From assembly GCF_017302985.1 (NCBI RefSeq), contig NZ_JAFIMU010000007.1, positions 1,426,001 to 1,490,000 on the forward strand: a stretch of DNA of 64,000 bases, read 5' to 3'. A model generated the notes under the pieces. It worked only from the letters and a program-made list of their open reading frames with translations. It was not told where the DNA came from and did no database searches. The position numbers and the translations under genes were made by a program. Shown in pieces: positions 55,990-63,604 of the stretch; the first letter of the stretch is position 1, and every line of letters begins with the position of its first letter. Origin of the DNA: Corallococcus macrosporus. Its GTDB lineage: Bacteria; Myxococcota; Myxococcia; Myxococcales; Myxococcaceae.

Positions 55990-56106
55990 ATGAGCACTCC
56001 CGGTCCGTCCCAGGTCCACTTCCGCACCTGCAACCTGTGTGAGGCCATGTGCGGCGTGCGCATCGAGGTGGCGGAGGCGGTGAGCGTCAAGGTAGTTGTC
56101 GCGTGA
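55990..56106 (+). pseudogene. 5' stump of the molybdopterin oxidoreductase gene
   Basis: Starts at ATG 55990 and encodes MSTPGPSQVHFRTCNLCEAM then CGVRIEVAE, after which it leaves the family and stops at 56104-56106 (AEAVSVKVVVA). The Fe-S cluster-binding CNLCEAMC part is identical at the DNA level to the start of the full gene at 61418. It is the original 5' end of that gene, cut off by the inserted island. The upstream promoter and start context of the ancestral gene should still be here. Confidence 0.85.
56014..56075 (+). repeat. 62-bp direct repeat, left copy
   Basis: Identical to 61451-61512 over 62 nt, from GTCCACTTCC to GAGGTGGCGGA, and different on both sides. It bounds the island and codes for the Fe-S cluster region of the oxidoreductase in both copies. 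This is the layout of attL/attR of an integrated element or of a duplication by recombination. Confidence 0.95.
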
Positions 56107-56220
56107 GCGGATACAACCGATGCGCTTCAGCTCATGCACTTCCCGTGAGGGGCTGAGGCGCACGGGGCCTGCTGACGTCCAGTCGCGGGTGTCGCGGCTC
56201 CAGCGCTCGGGGTGGCGGAC
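56076..56220 (-). pseudogene. C-terminal fragment of a transposase (IS3-like)
   Basis: The minus-strand frame reads RHPERWSRDTRDWTSAGPVR then LSPSREVHELKR, similar to the HPERW...RNW...V.LNPE ending of IS3-type transposases. It has no start and runs without a stop into the 62-bp repeat, so it was cut by the junction. The match is short and the family call is tentative. Confidence 0.42.
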
Positions 56221-56285
56221 ACGAGCGCGCTGCTACACTTGGTGGCGCTGGGCGAGCAGCGCGGCGTCGCGGCCGAAGTGCCTTA

Positions 56286-57161
56286 GGGGCTGTCCTTGAT
56301 CTCCAGCCCGAAAATCAACCTGGCGGATCGAACCTTGGGACTGGACCCAGCGCCGAAGCGGCTCTGGAGGTTTCCAGCCAGCGTCAGGCGTGATCAACGC
56401 TGGCTGTGCGCCGACATAAGCTGACCGATGCCGAATGGAGCCGCCTTGAGCCCCTCCTGGGCTCTCGCAGCGGACCACCTTCGAAGCGTGGGGACCGCGA
56501 CTTCATCAACGCCGTCATCTGGCGGGTGAAGACGGGCGTGCAGTGGCGCGACCTGCCCGAGAGGTTCGGCCACTGGAAGACGGTCTACAACCGTTTCCAC
56601 CGCTGGGTGCAGGCCGGCAGATGGGAAGCCATCTTCAAGGCCCTGCGACTGGAAGTGGATGAGCGCGGCTCGCTCGCGGATGCATCTGTCGTCCGAGCGC
56701 ACCAGGACGCCTCGGGCGAAAAGGGGGCCGAAGAAATGCTCTGGGGCGTTTTCGAGGAGGTTTTTCAACGAAGGTTCATGCCGTCACAACGACGGGCGGT
56801 AAGCCGCTCCACATCGAGGTAACGCCCGGCCAGCAGCATGAGTCCACCATAGCGGAGGAGTTGCTGGTGCACGCCGAGGGCGACGCCTTCATTGCGGACA
56901 CCGGCTATGACGCCGAGCGTATTCGCACCAATGCCGAGAAGGCGGGGATGACGCCTGTGATTCATCCCACCCCAGCAGAAAGCAGCCGCCTCCGCTGGAC
57001 CGCGCCCTCTATCGGCTGCGCTACCGGGTGTAGTGCTTCTTCCACGACCTCAAGCGCTTTCGCGCTGCGGCTACCCGCTACGACAAGACGGCGACCTGCT
57101 ACCTCGCCGTCCTCCACGTCGCATCCATGCTTCTCTGGCTGCGTTAATCAGGGACAGCCCC
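56286..57161 (+). mobile_element. IS5-family insertion sequence, inactive
   Basis: 876 bp bounded by near-perfect terminal inverted repeats: GGGGCTGTCCTTGAT at the left and ATCAGGGACAGCCCC at the right (14 of 15 match), each flanked by TA (56284-56285 and 57162-57163), the likely target duplication. The interior encodes a DDE transposase in broken frames. Size, ends and protein match the IS427-type branch of IS5. It lies just beside the hamB stop. Confidence 0.8.
56406..57147 (+). pseudogene. IS5-family (IS427-type) transposase, broken
   Basis: First frame to about 56735: KLTDAEWSRLEPLLGSRSGP, FINAVIWRVKTGVQWRDLPE, DASVVRAHQDASG (first catalytic Asp). At AAAAGGGGG (56720-56728) the coding frame moves by -1 and continues ALGRFRGGFSTKVHAVTTTG, TPGQQHESTIAEELL, FIADTGYDAERIR (second Asp). 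A second frame change near 56970 leads to KQPPPLDRALYRLRYRV, then TAG at 57031-57033 where the catalytic Glu codon (GAG) is expected, then CFFHDLKRFRAAATRYDKTA to a stop at 57145. The first shift could be programmed, as in this group; the second shift and the nonsense codon make it dead. Confidence 0.82.
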
Positions 57162-57204
57162 TAGTCTTCTCCAAGCCATACTCACCGACGACACCCACGA
57201 TTCA

Positions 57205-60200
57205 CTACGACGATTGAACAATCCCATCAAACACTCCTGCAAAGTAGGATGGGTACCTAAGAAGCACTTCACGCACCGCAGCATGTTCTTGGGACAGCGC
57301 CCACAACACTGCTTCCCGCGAATAGCACTCACCAATACATCCAGCAACCTCCTGCGCCAATTCCCTGTCAGCCAAACCAAGCTCATACACAAAAACAGAA
57401 GCCCCATCTGGCAGGCCGTACTTCACCCGAGCCTGGAGCGTACGCAGCGCCATTCCAAGCTGCTGCAAGTCAGGACGAACCAACCCTAGAGCCTCAGCCA
57501 CGGCCCCCAGAGCAAGTGCACCCTCGAATCCCACACATCCCTCACACAACTCAACTAAATGCTCAACTCGAACAGCACGCCCGACCTCCCCATGAACAAA
57601 ACGCGCCTGAACAAAGTCCACAACTTGAGAAATCTCCCCGAAAGAAAATCCATCAATCCACAAACTGGCCACATAAAAAAGAAAATCATTTGGTTCAAAC
57701 TTATGAAAAGCATGCCCCCTAAACCGAGCAACCATCAACGGCCAAACAACCGACAACAGGCCAAACTCACCACCCGAGCCTTCCATTCGCTCAACATTGT
57801 CAACAACCCACAGATTAATTGAAACCGCCTCATCAACACCATACATCATCCTTGAGAACACGGGGCGCCGTTCAGATATCCCAATCTTCTCTTGAACATT
57901 CCTGGCCAACAACGCACACACTTCCACCAACCTGTCTCGCTCATCATCCTCAGCCAAGTAGAAAGCCAAGGTCTCGCCCACCACATCCAACAGGCGTGCA
58001 TCCAAGTCTTCAGGCTCGCCGTCCTCAAGATGTGCCATCAGGAAGCTTTCCACAGCTGCAAAACTAGCCCACCTCTCCAGAAACTGTCGTTCTAAGCTGG
58101 GTATCGAAAACCCTATCTCAGCATGGGCCGAAGCCATTTCGAACGCCCACACAGCTCCAACTGAAGCGCCTGCAACGTACGACTCTGCAATTGAATACGG
58201 ATCTACATCCAACTGAACACCAGGTTGATCGCCATCTAGAGGCAAAACCATTTTCAACAACGAGCTAGCACATGGGGCCGCCGACTCAAACCTCAACAAA
58301 TCCTTAACCTCAGACCACAACCGCCTACCAGCATAACTCTTTCTCAGGTCGTATACTTCTGGATTCGAGAAGATGACACTACCTTCAGTGTGCATTCCCG
58401 ATCTGCCGACACGCCCAATCAGGTTGTGAAAGTCTCTAGCAGTAACTTTCTCCGCCCCTTGCCACACACTCGAAACAATCAAATACCGTATTGGGAGATT
58501 CACCCCTTGCGCCAAGGTGGAGGTACATATCACCACCTTTGCGAGATTCATTTTCATTGCATACTCAACAGCTAGCCGAACACCGTGGGGAATATTGCCG
58601 TGGTGGCTAAAGACGCCGGCTCGCGCGCTAGCAGTCACAGCCGCATCCTCACCCATGTTGCTCGCAAACAAGTCTCCCAACAGGCGCACCTCAGCACTAT
58701 CTGAGTGCACAGCCGGGGCAATCATTGGAACATTTCGCTCAAAAATATCCACCACGAGATCGCACATGGCCATTGCAACGGCCTTCGTTCCACAAAAGAC
58801 CGCTACACTACCCTGGGCAGACAGCTTAATCCCCAGATACAATGCGATTGACGTTCCACTATCCTTATTGGGGAAATAGCGAACTGCTCGCTCGCGCGGC
58901 TTCAATTGAAGCTGCAATTCCTCAATCACACGCGGCACGAAAAACCGCTGCTGTTCAGGAGCAAGCGGCTCAACAAATTCGAGCCTCCCTAGCCTATCTT
59001 GCCAACTCGCAAAGGCAACTGTTCTTTCCGTAGGGAGCAAATCGCGCCCTGATACAACCCGCAGGCGCTCTCCGCCAAGCCAATCACCAATGCTTTCCGC
59101 GTTTGATATAACTGCGGAAATCATCACCACCTGAACATGACCAGGAAGCATTCGCTTCAGTGACGTTAGAAGCAATTCATACGTGACGCCGCGAACACCG
59201 GCATCGAACTGGTGCCCCTCATCAAAGAAGATCAAACCAACCTTATGGGCCAGTTCCGGCGCATGCCGCAGGACGTAAGCGAGTTTTTCTGGCGTCACAA
59301 CAACTACGCCATACCCAGACGTTATCTCGTCGACATCAAGATCCATTCTAAAAACATCCGTCAATTCGTTAACGGAAACCAACTCGCCACGAAACGCCTC
59401 TGCTAGGTTGTCGCGGATCTCGTGACAAAGGGCGCGAAATGGAGCAACAACAACTGCCAGGGAGGCTCGTCCGCCCAAAAATGCAGCCCGAATAATAATT
59501 TCAATTGCCCGGCTCTTTCCGGCGCTTGTGGGCATTTGAATCACTGCGGAACCGCCCTTCAACACTCCTTGCTCTCCAATTAAGCGCTGAGCCGGCCAAA
59601 ATTCTCGAATGAATTTCGGGTTGCTCAAAACATCTGCCCAAACTCCCTCTTCAAGACCTGAGTAGAGCGGCAGACAGCGCCAACTAGAGTTCTCACACTT
59701 ACGCCGAACAACAGCAGCTATCACATCCGCAAAAAGCAACTCACGCGCAGTTCCAGCACTATACGCATAGGCTCGCAACCGACCCACTAAATCCAAAAGA
59801 AGCGACGTCTCACCGCCGCCAGACATATGCCCCACCAGCGCTCGACCAATCACATGGATCGACTCTTCATACCTACCGCGCCTAGCAACAGGAGGACTAA
59901 TCAAGTCTCCCTGCAATACCCATGAAAGCAAAACCTCCAATCCATCTACCTCTAGCTCCAAATTATCCAAGTCGACTTCATCAACTAGAACTTTTGCACT
60001 CCCGGGCAACCCGCATAGATAGTACGCTGCGGCCCCAAGCACCAACAGATAGGTATCCAACGAGCCTGCAAGATGAGACTGCCTAAATGCATCAAAGTAG
60101 CGAGCCGCAAAGCGCAATGACTCTCCCGTTGGATTCTCGTCGCCACCCGAACCATTACTCTCTGCAGTCAAGTCACCTAAAATACCTATCGTAAGAACAA

Positions 60201-60321
60201 GCAGATCAGCGGGCCGTGAGGAGAGCTCAATATGCTCTCCAGCTGGAACTGCATATTCATACATCTTCGCCTTTGCCCTTGTCACACGCAGCAAGCCCAA
60301 CGACTTTGCATCAGGCCTCAT
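57205..60321 (-). CDS. hamB: Hachiman system helicase HamB
   Basis: 1038 residues starting at MRPDAKSLGLL, with AGGAGG 8 nt upstream; this ATG overlaps the hamA stop by 11 nt. A superfamily 2 helicase of Ski2/Hel308 type: Walker A in VIQMPTSAGKSRAIE (about 262-270), TPEKLAYVLR, DExH box IFFDEGHQFD (about 367-370), motif III-like ISAVISNAES, motif V CTSTLAQGVNLP (about 600-610) and motif VI NLIGRVGRSG (about 633-642). HamB loads on DNA and partners HamA in the anti-phage system Hachiman. Codon use is much more AT-rich than in the host. Full length with intact motifs. Confidence 0.92.
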   Translation of the reverse strand: MRPDAKSLGLLRVTRAKAKMYEYAVPAGEHIELSSRPADLLVLTIGILGDLTAESNGSGGDENPTGESLRFAARYFDAFRQSHLAGSLDTYLLVLGAAAYYLCGLPGSAKVLVDEVDLDNLELEVDGLEVLLSWVLQGDLISPPVARRGRYEESIHVIGRALVGHMSGGGETSLLLDLVGRLRAYAYSAGTARELLFADVIAAVVRRKCENSSWRCLPLYSGLEEGVWADVLSNPKFIREFWPAQRLIGEQGVLKGGSAVIQMPTSAGKSRAIEIIIRAAFLGGRASLAVVVAPFRALCHEIRDNLAEAFRGELVSVNELTDVFRMDLDVDEITSGYGVVVVTPEKLAYVLRHAPELAHKVGLIFFDEGHQFDAGVRGVTYELLLTSLKRMLPGHVQVVMISAVISNAESIGDWLGGERLRVVSGRDLLPTERTVAFASWQDRLGRLEFVEPLAPEQQRFFVPRVIEELQLQLKPRERAVRYFPNKDSGTSIALYLGIKLSAQGSVAVFCGTKAVAMAMCDLVVDIFERNVPMIAPAVHSDSAEVRLLGDLFASNMGEDAAVTASARAGVFSHHGNIPHGVRLAVEYAMKMNLAKVVICTSTLAQGVNLPIRYLIVSSVWQGAEKVTARDFHNLIGRVGRSGMHTEGSVIFSNPEVYDLRKSYAGRRLWSEVKDLLRFESAAPCASSLLKMVLPLDGDQPGVQLDVDPYSIAESYVAGASVGAVWAFEMASAHAEIGFSIPSLERQFLERWASFAAVESFLMAHLEDGEPEDLDARLLDVVGETLAFYLAEDDERDRLVEVCALLARNVQEKIGISERRPVFSRMMYGVDEAVSINLWVVDNVERMEGSGGEFGLLSVVWPLMVARFRGHAFHKFEPNDFLFYVASLWIDGFSFGEISQVVDFVQARFVHGEVGRAVRVEHLVELCEGCVGFEGALALGAVAEALGLVRPDLQQLGMALRTLQARVKYGLPDGASVFVYELGLADRELAQEVAGCIGECYSREAVLWALSQEHAAVREVLLRYPSYFAGVFDGIVQSS

Positions 60322-61153
60322 CTGCAGCCCTCCTGTACAGCTCATGCACCAAGGACATCAGATTGACGCCATGAACAACCAGGAGCTGCACATTAGCCCT
60401 TGCCGGATGTGCCGCCACATCGGTCAGCCTAATGACATTTCGATCAAAGGCATCCGACGAAATAACTGCCGCAGCACCGAATTTTTCTTTATACGGCCGA
60501 GCAACTAGGTCTTGAAACCTCGCCACTCTCTTAGCTTGACTTAGCGAGAGACTCCCCCCTTCAGCCACCAAGCGTTGCTTGATAGCGTTTAGCGACTCGG
60601 CCCGTCTCCTCAGGTCTTTTGCTGAATCATCGACCGCATCCTGTAGTCTGCTTGAGGGGGAGTCACTAGAAAGCCTTGCTTTAATCTCAAAAACCAACAA
60701 CAAATCATCTACAGACTCTCGGCCAGCAGACACGACCTTAAACCCAACAACGTCACTTCCCTTCGGCGATTCATTTCGAACCATCTTGTCTGCATACCGG
60801 GTGCGCGGAACCCAGAAGCCAAGTAAATATTCAACATAATCGGCTATCAATATTTCCGCGAAATCTCCGGCCCGGATACTGGGACCTGGGGCAACGGCGG
60901 GATCAGGGAACTTCAAGGTATTAAGATACTCACCACGCGAATGGCCTGTCCCATCCCGCAGAATGTCGATTTTATTGTCCGCACAGTAGTGGCTTCGAAA
61001 ATGACGAGCCCAGTCAGATAGGACGCCATCGTCATTCTCGTGTCTCAACTCCCAAACCGATATTTCGCAGCCATTAGCGCCCTGCAGCTTTTCGCCCGTA
61101 TCAAACAGCCATCGAACCTGCAGCGGGGGGCGCACTTTGCTTCTAGAAGGCAC
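60311..61153 (-). CDS. hamA: Hachiman system nuclease HamA (DUF1837)
   Basis: 280 residues from the GTG at 61153, chosen because GGAG lies 7 nt upstream; a TTG at 61159 is the alternative. DUF1837 is recognised by the C-terminal nuclease core of PD-(D/E)xK type: AGDFAEILIADYVEYLLGFW (Glu about 100), KGSDVVGFKV (Asp about 134) and LLLVFEIKARL (Glu 156, Lys 158). HamA is held inactive by HamB and degrades DNA when phage-like DNA damage frees it. The order hamA-hamB with an 11-nt overlap is the standard Hachiman operon. AT-rich codons match hamB. Confidence 0.92.
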   Translation of the reverse strand: MPSRSKVRPPLQVRWLFDTGEKLQGANGCEISVWELRHENDDGVLSDWARHFRSHYCADNKIDILRDGTGHSRGEYLNTLKFPDPAVAPGPSIRAGDFAEILIADYVEYLLGFWVPRTRYADKMVRNESPKGSDVVGFKVVSAGRESVDDLLLVFEIKARLSSDSPSSRLQDAVDDSAKDLRRRAESLNAIKQRLVAEGGSLSLSQAKRVARFQDLVARPYKEKFGAAAVISSDAFDRNVIRLTDVAAHPARANVQLLVVHGVNLMSLVHELYRRAADEA

Positions 61154-61326
61154 AAACAAGCTCCAGTATCTATTGACCGTTTAAGCTCTGTGATGCCGCA
61201 ATAGCAATCTAGCATACTGCCGCTGTGCCTTATGGAGAGCCACAGGCGTAACGCCGAGCCAAATTCCTTGAGCCTCTTGGTGTCCTTCACGACCCGGCGT
61301 CAACCCTTCACCGAAGGCCGCTGCGG

Positions 61327-61440
61327 TTAGGTTGCTGTACGGTTTCCTGAGTACTCACGCCCAGCCCAGTAAAACCGCAGCTTCGGCTCACTCATCAAAT
61401 TGAGATAGGCTAAGTCAATGGCATTGCGCGCAATCTCAAG
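61327..61440 (-). other. Short reading-frame remnant at the right edge of the island
   Basis: A 37-codon open stretch on the minus strand ending at TAA (61327-61329) encodes EIARNAIDLAYLNLMSEPKL then RFYWAGREYSG. It has no start codon and is cut close to the repeat. The composition looks like real protein rather than a shadow, so it may be the tail of a gene lost at integration. No family is recognised. The rest of the 258 nt between hamA and the next start shows no feature. Confidence 0.3.
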
Positions 61441-63604
61441 TCAGAATAACGTCCACTTCCGCACCTGCAACCTGTGTGAGGCCATGTGCGGCGTGCGCAT
61501 CGAGGTGGCGGACGGGCGCATCACGTCCATCAAGGGCGACGCGGAGGACCCGTTCAGCCGAGGGCACATCTGTCCCAAGGCCGTGGCGCTGCGCGACCTG
61601 CACGAGGACCCGGACCGGCTGCGCCACCCCATGAAGCGCACCGCGTCCGGCTGGGAGCGCGTGTCCTGGGAGGACGCGTTCCGCGACATCAGCCAGCGGC
61701 TCCATGACCTCCAGAAGGAGCACGGACCGAACGCCGTGGGCGCGTACCTGGGCAACCCCAACGTGCACAACCTGGGCGCGATGATGTTCGGGCCCATGCT
61801 GCTTCGCGCGCTGCGCTCACGGAACCGGTTCTCCGCGACGTCTGTTGATCAGCTCCCCCACCAGCTCGCGGCCCACCTCATGTTCGGCCACCAGTTGCTG
61901 GTGCCCATCCCGGATATCGACCGCACCCGGTACATGCTCATGCTGGGCGCGAACCCGCTTGCGTCCAATGGCAGCCTGATGACGACGCCGGACGTGCGGG
62001 CCCGGCTGCGCGCCATCCAGGAGCGCGGCGGCAAGGTGGTGGTCATCGACCCGCGCCGCACGGAGACGGCGGGCATCGCGGACCAGCACGTCTTCATCCG
62101 TCCTGGCACGGACGCGCTCGCGCTGTTCTCCCTGCTGCACGTCGTCTTGGAAGGCAACGCGCACCGCATGGGCCGGCTCGCGGCGTTCGTGGACGGCTTG
62201 GACACCGTGGTGCCGCTCGTCCGGGACTTCGCTCCGGAGCGCACGGCCCTGCACACCGGCATCGCGCCGGAGGTGCTTCGCGGCATCGCGCGGGGCTTCC
62301 TCGCCGCGGATGGGGCCGTCTGCTACGGGCGCGTCGGCGTGTCCACGCAGCCGTTCGGCTCGCTCTGCCAGTGGCTCATCAACGTCCTCAACATCGTCAC
62401 CGGCAACCTGGACCGGGAGGGCGGCGCGCTCTTCACCCTGCCCGCCTTCGACCTCATCGGCGGGCCTCGCGCGTTCGGCGTGGGCCCTGGCAGCCATGGC
62501 CGCTGGAAGAGCCGGGTCCGCGGCCTGCCGGAATCCTCCGGGGAGCTGCCCGTCGCGGCGCTCGCGGAGGAGATCCTCACTCCAGGCGAGGGACGCATCC
62601 GCGCGCTCATCACCGTGGCCGGCAACCCCGTGCTGTCCACGCCCAATGGCACGCAGCTGGACGCCGCGCTGGGGCAGCTCGACTTCATGGTGAGCGTGGA
62701 TCCGTACCTCAACGAGACCACGCGCCACGCGCACTACATCCTGCCGCCCGCGTCGCTGCTGGAGCGCGGGCACTACGACCTCGTGTTCCACGTGCTCGCG
62801 GTGCGCAACACGGCGAAGTACTCGCCGCCGGTGTTCCAAGCGGGTCCGGACTCCTTGCAGGACTGGGAGATTGCCCTGGAGCTCCAGCACCGGCTGGAAA
62901 CCCTGCGCAAGGGGCGGAGCGTTCGTGCCCGGCTCCAGCACCAGGCCCTCAAGCGGCTGGGGCCGGAGCGCATCCTCGACCTGGGCCTTCGCATGGGGCC
63001 GTATGGCACTCGCTTCCATCCGCTCAAGAAGCACGGCCTGTCGCTCGCGAAGCTTCGCGCCGCGCCGCATGGCATCGACCTGGGGCCGTTGAAGCCCAGC
63101 CTGCCCGGCCGGCTCCGCAACCGCTCCAAGCGCATCCAGTTGGCGCCGGAGCTGTTCGTCGCGGACGTGGCCCGGCTTCGCGCCGCGTTCCCGGACGACG
63201 CGGCCCCCCGCGAGGGCGAGCTGCTGCTCATCGGCCGGCGGCACCTGCGCGACAACAACTCCTGGATGCACAACGTGGCGGGACTGGTGAAGGGCCGCCC
63301 GCGCTGCACGCTGATGATCCACCCGGACGACGCCTCACGCATCGGGCTCACCGATGGCGTGAACGCCACCATCCGCTCGCGCGTGGGTGAAGTGACCGTG
63401 CCCGTCGCCGTCACCGCCGACGTGATGCCCGGCGTCGTCAGCCTGCCGCACGGCTACGGCCACCAGCGTCCGGGCATCCGCCAGCAGGTCGCCAGCGCGC
63501 ATGCGGGCGCCAGCATCAACGACCTCACGGATGATCAAGCGCTGGACGTCGTCAGTGGCAACGCGGCCTTCAGCGGGACGCCCGTGCAGGTGCGTCCGGC
63601 CTGA
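61418..63604 (+). CDS. Molybdopterin-dependent oxidoreductase, start supplied by the island
   Basis: 728 residues. The 4Fe-4S motif CNLCEAMCGVRIEV plus GHICPKA (Cys 17, 20, 24, 52), the MGD-binding domains (YMLMLGANPLASNGS, VVVIDPRRTETAGIADQHVF, RIRALITVAGNPVLS) and a C-terminal molydopterin dinucleotide-binding domain (DNNSWMHNV, GVVSLPHGYGH) define the BisC/formate-dehydrogenase-like family. Residue after the MGD site does not show an obvious Sec or Cys ligand pattern. The first 11 residues (MALRAISSQNN) come from island DNA; the ancestral start is at 55990 (MSTPGPSQ). No Tat signal. Expression now depends on island-derived upstream sequence. Confidence 0.9.
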   Translation: MALRAISSQNNVHFRTCNLCEAMCGVRIEVADGRITSIKGDAEDPFSRGHICPKAVALRDLHEDPDRLRHPMKRTASGWERVSWEDAFRDISQRLHDLQKEHGPNAVGAYLGNPNVHNLGAMMFGPMLLRALRSRNRFSATSVDQLPHQLAAHLMFGHQLLVPIPDIDRTRYMLMLGANPLASNGSLMTTPDVRARLRAIQERGGKVVVIDPRRTETAGIADQHVFIRPGTDALALFSLLHVVLEGNAHRMGRLAAFVDGLDTVVPLVRDFAPERTALHTGIAPEVLRGIARGFLAADGAVCYGRVGVSTQPFGSLCQWLINVLNIVTGNLDREGGALFTLPAFDLIGGPRAFGVGPGSHGRWKSRVRGLPESSGELPVAALAEEILTPGEGRIRALITVAGNPVLSTPNGTQLDAALGQLDFMVSVDPYLNETTRHAHYILPPASLLERGHYDLVFHVLAVRNTAKYSPPVFQAGPDSLQDWEIALELQHRLETLRKGRSVRARLQHQALKRLGPERILDLGLRMGPYGTRFHPLKKHGLSLAKLRAAPHGIDLGPLKPSLPGRLRNRSKRIQLAPELFVADVARLRAAFPDDAAPREGELLLIGRRHLRDNNSWMHNVAGLVKGRPRCTLMIHPDDASRIGLTDGVNATIRSRVGEVTVPVAVTADVMPGVVSLPHGYGHQRPGIRQQVASAHAGASINDLTDDQALDVVSGNAAFSGTPVQVRPA
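61451..61512 (+). repeat. 62-bp direct repeat, right copy
   Basis: Second copy of the repeat at 56014-56075, codons 12-32 of the oxidoreductase. To its right the native gene continues (GACGGGCGC), whereas the left copy continues into unrelated sequence. No substitutions between the copies, so the duplication is recent or is maintained by exchange. Confidence 0.95.

What the first reader, a model, noticed from the sequence alone, without database searches (positions are those of the whole stretch)
57205..61153. Complete Hachiman (HamAB) anti-phage operon in AT-rich imported DNA
HamA shows the DUF1837 nuclease core (Glu, Asp, ExK) and HamB all SF2 helicase motifs, overlapping by 11 nt in the order hamA-hamB. 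Base and codon use is sharply unlike the GC-rich surroundings. The operon is intact while its companion insertion sequence is dead, so selection may be keeping it.
Basis: partly seen in the sequence, partly recalled or inferred. Interest (0 to 1): 0.8.

Follow-up and report, generated by a model that had tools for sequence, protein, structure and literature searches.

The report
Hachiman anti-phage operon in a myxobacterium
A soil bacterium has picked up a complete two-gene anti-virus system of a known type (Hachiman); it is an ordinary member of that type, but its two genes overlap in a precisely conserved way that probably keeps the dangerous DNA-cutting half made together with its restraint.

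Summary
Window 57205-61159 (- strand) encodes an intact HamA nuclease (282 aa) and HamB helicase: PADLOC 350 and 1181 bits. The AlphaFold model of HamA has solved E. coli HamA as its only PDB match at E<=0.001; Z 13.4. Catalytic residues are present; GC is 0.52 in a 0.65-0.75 window; 15 of 15 congeners lack this HamA.

It is a new member of a known system. Three corrections or additions:
(1) The island sits inside the 5' end of a molybdopterin-oxidoreductase gene that is uninterrupted in 15 of 15 congeners, between exact 62-bp repeats of that gene. How these arose is unexplained.
(2) The "companion IS" is two remnants: an IS3-family end and an IS5-family element with a broken transposase.
(3) The 11-nt hamA/hamB overlap is a branch signature (87 of 89 relatives; absent in 14 of 14 other-branch loci). 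hamA's last Arg codons, AGGAGG here, look like hamB's ribosome-binding site and are under strong synonymous constraint. I infer translational coupling of nuclease and restraint.

Selection for retention is not shown; recent arrival fits equally well.

The parts
55990..56075 (+). Native start and first 86 nt of the molybdopterin-oxidoreductase gene, cut off from its body; 56014-56075 is the left copy of the 62-bp repeat
56078..56284 (-). End fragment of an IS3-family element; many copies in congeners
   Evidence: DNA matches; the matching copy in L158 encodes an IS3 transposase (NF033516, 180.9 bits, cut-off 160)
56285..57163 (+). IS5-family element with 17-nt terminal inverted repeats; transposase broken
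   Evidence: inverted repeat I3; NF033580 118.3 bits (cut-off 110) for the first ORF; frame change and stop relative to L158
57205..60321 (-). hamB, SF2 (Ski2-like) sensor helicase; an upstream ATG at 60345 is also in frame
60311..60321 (-). 11-nt overlap of the end of hamA with the start of hamB
60330..60335 (-). AGGAGG (hamA codons 276-277), proposed ribosome-binding site of hamB
   Evidence: sequence; codon statistics
60311..61159 (-). hamA, DUF1837 nuclease with D136, E158, K160 (start TTG 61159 or GTG 61153)
61160..61450 (.). AT-richer DNA upstream of hamA, presumably with its promoter; no match elsewhere in 16 genomes of the genus; no sigma-70-like promoter found here by consensus scan
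61451..61512 (+). Right copy of the 62-bp repeat, continuous with the gene body; the gene now opens at ATG 61418 in the insert

Best explanation
This is a horizontally acquired Hachiman anti-phage system. By homology, the helicase HamB holds the nuclease HamA inactive while it surveys intact dsDNA; when it meets damaged or aberrant DNA, as in a phage infection, its helicase activity activates HamA, which degrades phage and host DNA and so ends the infection. In this branch hamB appears to have its ribosome-binding site inside the last codons of hamA and starts 11 nt before the hamA gene ends, so that hamB should be translated by ribosomes that have just finished hamA and the nuclease is made together with its restraint. 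Shown here: both genes intact, family membership, fold, catalytic residues, conserved overlap, synonymous constraint, foreign composition, insertion into a gene uninterrupted in congeners. Inferred: activity, mechanism (from the E. coli system), translational coupling, recent arrival.
For: PADLOC HamA and HamB hits. HamA model pLDDT 92.3; 8vx9_A (HamA) is the only PDB match at E<=0.001 (1.2e-6) and ranks first at Z 13.4, rmsd 4.2, 229 aligned. HamB aligns with solved HamB at E 5.3e-45 with shared helicase motifs. 89 of 89 relatives keep the five residues and have hamB next to hamA; 87 of 89 keep the 11-nt overlap. AGG in 94 of 131 Arg codons at the two positions against 170 of 1454 elsewhere in hamA; R277 z 25.6 and R276 z 13.8 in the codon scan. 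Published mechanism: PMC12278908, abstract and sections 8, 9 and 10.
Against: No experiment. Pfam HamA score is below cut-off. Sequence match to the characterised HamA is insignificant (E 0.24). In 30 of 89 relatives no 4-mer of AGGAGG lies upstream of the overlap start, so the ribosome-binding site is not universal. Relatives were chosen by HamA similarity, so part of the conservation is shared descent. The consensus scan found no promoter-like site upstream of hamA and no more such sites than in shuffles (2 against a mean of 2.5); expression in this host is unknown.
Confidence: 0.9

Rival explanations
1. The operon is genuine by sequence but a silent passenger: it arrived recently, is not expressed or not useful in this host, and is drifting.
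For: GC3 0.50-0.51 shows no amelioration; a lone insert between IS remnants that disturbed a host gene; no promoter-like site found upstream.
Against: Both ORFs, 282 and about 1038-1046 codons, are free of stops and frameshifts, and the overlap is kept.
Confidence: 0.3
2. The island came in by site-specific integration, and the 62-bp repeats are its att sites in the 5' end of the oxidoreductase gene.
For: Exact 62-bp direct repeat at both ends; the right copy has a replacement in-frame start, ATG 61418; truncated copies of the same gene end are joined to other DNA in two congeners.
Against: No integrase match in hamA, hamB, the transposase ORF or ten further small ORFs in or at the edges of the insert; the left copy runs within 2 bp into an IS3-family end; both copies carry a G at position 24 that none of 15 congeners has, which suggests duplicated DNA of this species, though a same-species donor would look alike.
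Confidence: 0.1
3. The conserved overlap reflects only protein constraint on the HamA and HamB ends, not translational coupling.
For: A282 and D280 lie in the overlap and are explained by dual coding; the HamA C-terminus is conserved as protein; 30 of 89 have no Shine-Dalgarno-like 4-mer.
Against: R276 and R277 lie outside the overlap, yet their synonymous choice is strongly skewed to AGG/AGA.
Confidence: 0.25

Closest known systems
E. coli Hachiman HamAB (8vx9 and related entries; PMC12278908)
   Same: Nuclease-helicase pair, same HamA fold (Z 13.4), E158/K160 align with the chain's E138/K140 (positions counted from the aligned range), DEGH helicase
   Different: Only about 15% identical over the HamA structural alignment; a different HamA branch
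Hachiman of Myxococcus sp. CA023 (L062/L063)
   Same: HamA 56% identical, HamB about 50%, 11-nt overlap, low GC in a GC-rich genome
   Different: Different species; its tail has A-R at the two Arg positions and no AGGAGG. Tree grouping with the window is not firmly supported (97/73)
Hachiman on an IncY E. coli plasmid, CP083496.1 (L056)
   Same: HamA 55% identical, 11-nt overlap
   Different: hamB is annotated there as three ORFs

Membership tests
Hachiman (HamAB) | HamA / DUF1837 profile match | tested here: met
   PADLOC 350.2 bits; Pfam PF08878 20.9 bits, below its cut-off of 25
Hachiman (HamAB) | HamA nuclease fold | tested here: met
   8vx9_A first in Foldseek (E 1.2e-6) and VIA-align (Z 13.4)
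Hachiman (HamAB) | D-E(X)K catalytic motif in HamA | tested here: met
   D136, E158, K160; 89 of 89 relatives; motif named in PMC12278908 section 9
Hachiman (HamAB) | HamB SF2 helicase with DEGH box, adjacent to hamA | tested here: met
   PADLOC 1180.7 bits; alignment to 8vx9_B; overlap with hamA
Hachiman (HamAB) | HamA-HamB complex formation | not testable with these tools
   Needs co-purification; the complex was not modelled here
Hachiman (HamAB) | Protection against phage | not testable with these tools
   Needs plaque assays
Site-specific integrative element | Integrase or site-specific recombinase gene in the element | tested here: inconclusive
   No match in hamA, hamB, the transposase ORF and ten small ORFs; an integrase acting from elsewhere or lost later cannot be excluded
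Site-specific integrative element | Direct repeats at both ends | tested here: met
   62 bp, exact

The most novel reading that the evidence does not exclude
One branch of Hachiman, spread over many phyla, has fixed a dual-coded 11-nt overlap, usually with the hamB ribosome-binding site inside the last codons of hamA, so that the suicidal nuclease is made together with its restraint: a translational safety lock that travels with the operon into hosts of very different GC content.
Probability: 0.6. Interest if true: 0.4.

Novelty: new member of a known kind. Interest (0 to 1): 0.3.

Why it matters
As a Hachiman operon it adds one occurrence, in a genus where the other 15 genomes held lack this HamA. 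The more general point is that a phage-defence suicide nuclease seems tied to its restraint by a conserved translational overlap. That would help explain how such operons move between very different hosts without harming them, and it can be tested by recoding two codons. The insertion site is also a clean before/after comparison with congeners.

Tried and rejected
Selection for retention: not testable, as no homologue is close enough for dN/dS (about 58% identity at best).

Donor: not found. The first genome-contig scan, with HamA alone, found no relative; the second, with alignment A1, found 164, of which the best 80 were kept. The HamA tree puts the window beside Myxococcus sp. CA023 without firm support (97/73). 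No match in phages; 13 plasmid records matched.

A 37-aa reading frame at 61340-61450 (-) looked protein-like, but found only one E=4 match in plasmids and nothing convincing in the loci held. Rejected.

Insertion hotspot: the same gene's 5' end is joined to other DNA in G001 contig 2 (42 bp of the repeat) and G006 contig 432 (399 bp). The truncation points differ, and both genomes also hold a complete copy, so these may be decayed second copies. Not claimed.

The 11-nt overlap as a trait of all Hachiman: rejected. Of 16 Pfam-HamA loci listed for the phylum, the 2 with a HamA tail of this branch have it and the other 14 do not; in 2 of those 14 no downstream ORF of 200 codons was found at all.

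Constraint at S94 (z 15.6) is the AGY/TCN serine class rather than ordinary synonymous constraint (recalled reasoning) and was set aside. L084 was dropped from the protein alignment and the codon scan because of an internal stop; it is counted in the 89.

The 18 reference genes were picked by a filter that includes GC3 above 0.85, so their mean (0.939) is biased; I therefore rest the contrast on the unfiltered GC profile and the two neighbouring genes.

In one search chains other than Hachiman HamA scored Z 5.9 or less; I draw nothing from them.

Full report
What is there. On the minus strand hamA (60311-61159) is followed by hamB (57205-60345, or to 60321 from its second Met). PADLOC gives 350.2 bits for HamA and 1180.7 bits for HamB over almost the full length. 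Pfam's HamA model scores 20.9 bits, below its cut-off of 25, NCBIfam has no HamA hit, and a Pfam HamA search lists no match at E<=0.001 in the window's own genome. phmmer against solved HamA is insignificant (E 0.24), but that alignment pairs E158 and K160 with the chain's E138 and K140 (positions counted back from the aligned range). Mutating E138 and K140 together abolished E. coli Hachiman defence (PMC12278908, section 9).

Fold. Because similarity to the characterised HamA is weak, I tested the fold. AlphaFold2 on 38 aligned sequences (A2: the window and 37 of the 84 genome and viral loci fetched) gave pLDDT 92.3 and pTM 0.91. Foldseek's only PDB match at E<=0.001 is HamA 8vx9_A (1.2e-6). 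VIA-align ranks Hachiman chains first: 8vx9_A Z 13.4 (rmsd 4.2, 229 aligned), 8vxy_A Z 11.7, 8zue_A Z 10.5; the next row has Z 5.9. HamB aligns with solved HamB over residues 241-660, E 5.3e-45, sharing PTSAGK, DEGH, TLAQG and IGR-GR motifs.

Relatives. In the genome collection 164 stretches encode relatives; the best 80 were kept. With 4 viral contigs and 5 of the 13 matching plasmids I compared 89 loci. All 89 have D99, E102, D136, E158 and K160 and a hamB match directly downstream. 87 of 89 have a start codon for hamB exactly 11 nt before the end of the hamA stop codon; the exceptions are L084 and L135. The tree mixes phyla: 16 phylum groups need 32 changes where 15 is the least possible.

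The overlap. In the window the join reads TAC AGG AGG GCT GCA GAT GAG GCC TGA: the codons of Arg276-Arg277 form AGGAGG eight nt upstream of the hamB ATG. In the 89 relatives AGG is used for 94 of 131 Arg codons at these two positions, against 170 of 1454 in the rest of hamA. Upstream of the overlap start AGGAGG is present in 31 of 89, a 5-mer of it in 13, a 4-mer in 15 and none in 30. A codon scan on 58 sequences under 80% identity (window included; 155 columns tested, mean z 1.32) has as its top five columns A282 (z 45.3), R277 (25.6), S94 (15.6), R276 (13.8) and D280 (10.3). A282 and D280 lie in the overlap and are explained by dual coding; S94 is a serine codon-class effect; the two Arg codons lie outside the overlap and point to a ribosome-binding site. 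Of 16 Pfam-HamA loci in the phylum, the 2 with this tail have the 11-nt overlap (L173 is the same place as L063; L174 is new), and the 14 others do not. I infer translational coupling in this branch. It fits the published finding that HamB alone, not HamA alone, was soluble and that the complex is 1:1 (PMC12278908, section 8). The words overlap and operon do not occur in that paper's main text, and no held paper has both Hachiman and translational coupling; other wordings and papers outside that library were not searched.

Origin. GC3 is 0.512 (hamA) and 0.502 (hamB), against 0.936 and 0.919 in the neighbouring histidine kinase and oxidoreductase genes; the 1-kb GC profile shows the same step. 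This HamA is absent from 15 of 15 congeners and present in 2 of 96 genomes of the family, the window's own included; the other is Myxococcus sp. CA023, by equal contig length. No call names the window's genus; Corallococcus is a guess from recall. Other HamA branches occur in 2 of the 15 congeners (G007, G014). A search for papers with Hachiman and Myxococc found one, on marine biofilms, seen as a listing only.

Insertion site. The island lies inside the 5' end of a molybdopterin-oxidoreductase gene. An exact 62-bp repeat stands at 56014-56075 and 61451-61512. In 15 of 15 congeners the corresponding stretch is uninterrupted, followed by the gene body, with an ATG shortly before it. Both window copies carry a G at position 24 that none of the 15 has; each congener differs from them at 3-7 of 62 positions. 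That suggests duplication of DNA of this species. The left copy runs after 2 bp into the end of an IS3-family element (56078-56284), which is cut by an IS5-family element (56285-57163). DNA of both kinds recurs in congeners; a copy of the first in L158 encodes an IS3 transposase. The window's IS5 transposase has a frame change and a stop that the L158 copy lacks. How a 62-bp duplication arose is unexplained; no integrase was found.

Verdict. The finding is real and correctly named: a new member of a known system, with some extra interest from the conserved overlap. That selection keeps it is not shown.

Noticed in passing
L023:3-900: In congener G006, two AT-richer ORFs abut a copy of the same oxidoreductase gene cut at 399 bp; they resemble a toxin tail with a partner protein only by eye, and Pfam and NCBIfam gave no match over cut-off.
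   Followed up: partly
L020:1451-1542: In congener G001 the first part of the same gene (42 bp of the repeat, plus its upstream) stands alone in a second place on another contig, followed by unrelated DNA.
   Followed up: partly
L056:5983-9948: The E. coli IncY plasmid CP083496.1 carries a close relative of this Hachiman whose hamB is annotated as three ORFs, so it may be broken.
   Followed up: no
L167, L178 (G007 contig 737): Congener G007 has two HamA genes of another branch 4.4 kb apart with identical C-terminal tails, possibly a duplicated Hachiman.
   Followed up: no
61418-63604: The oxidoreductase gene has lost its native start but keeps an open frame through a new ATG inside the insert; whether it is still expressed is unknown.
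   Followed up: no
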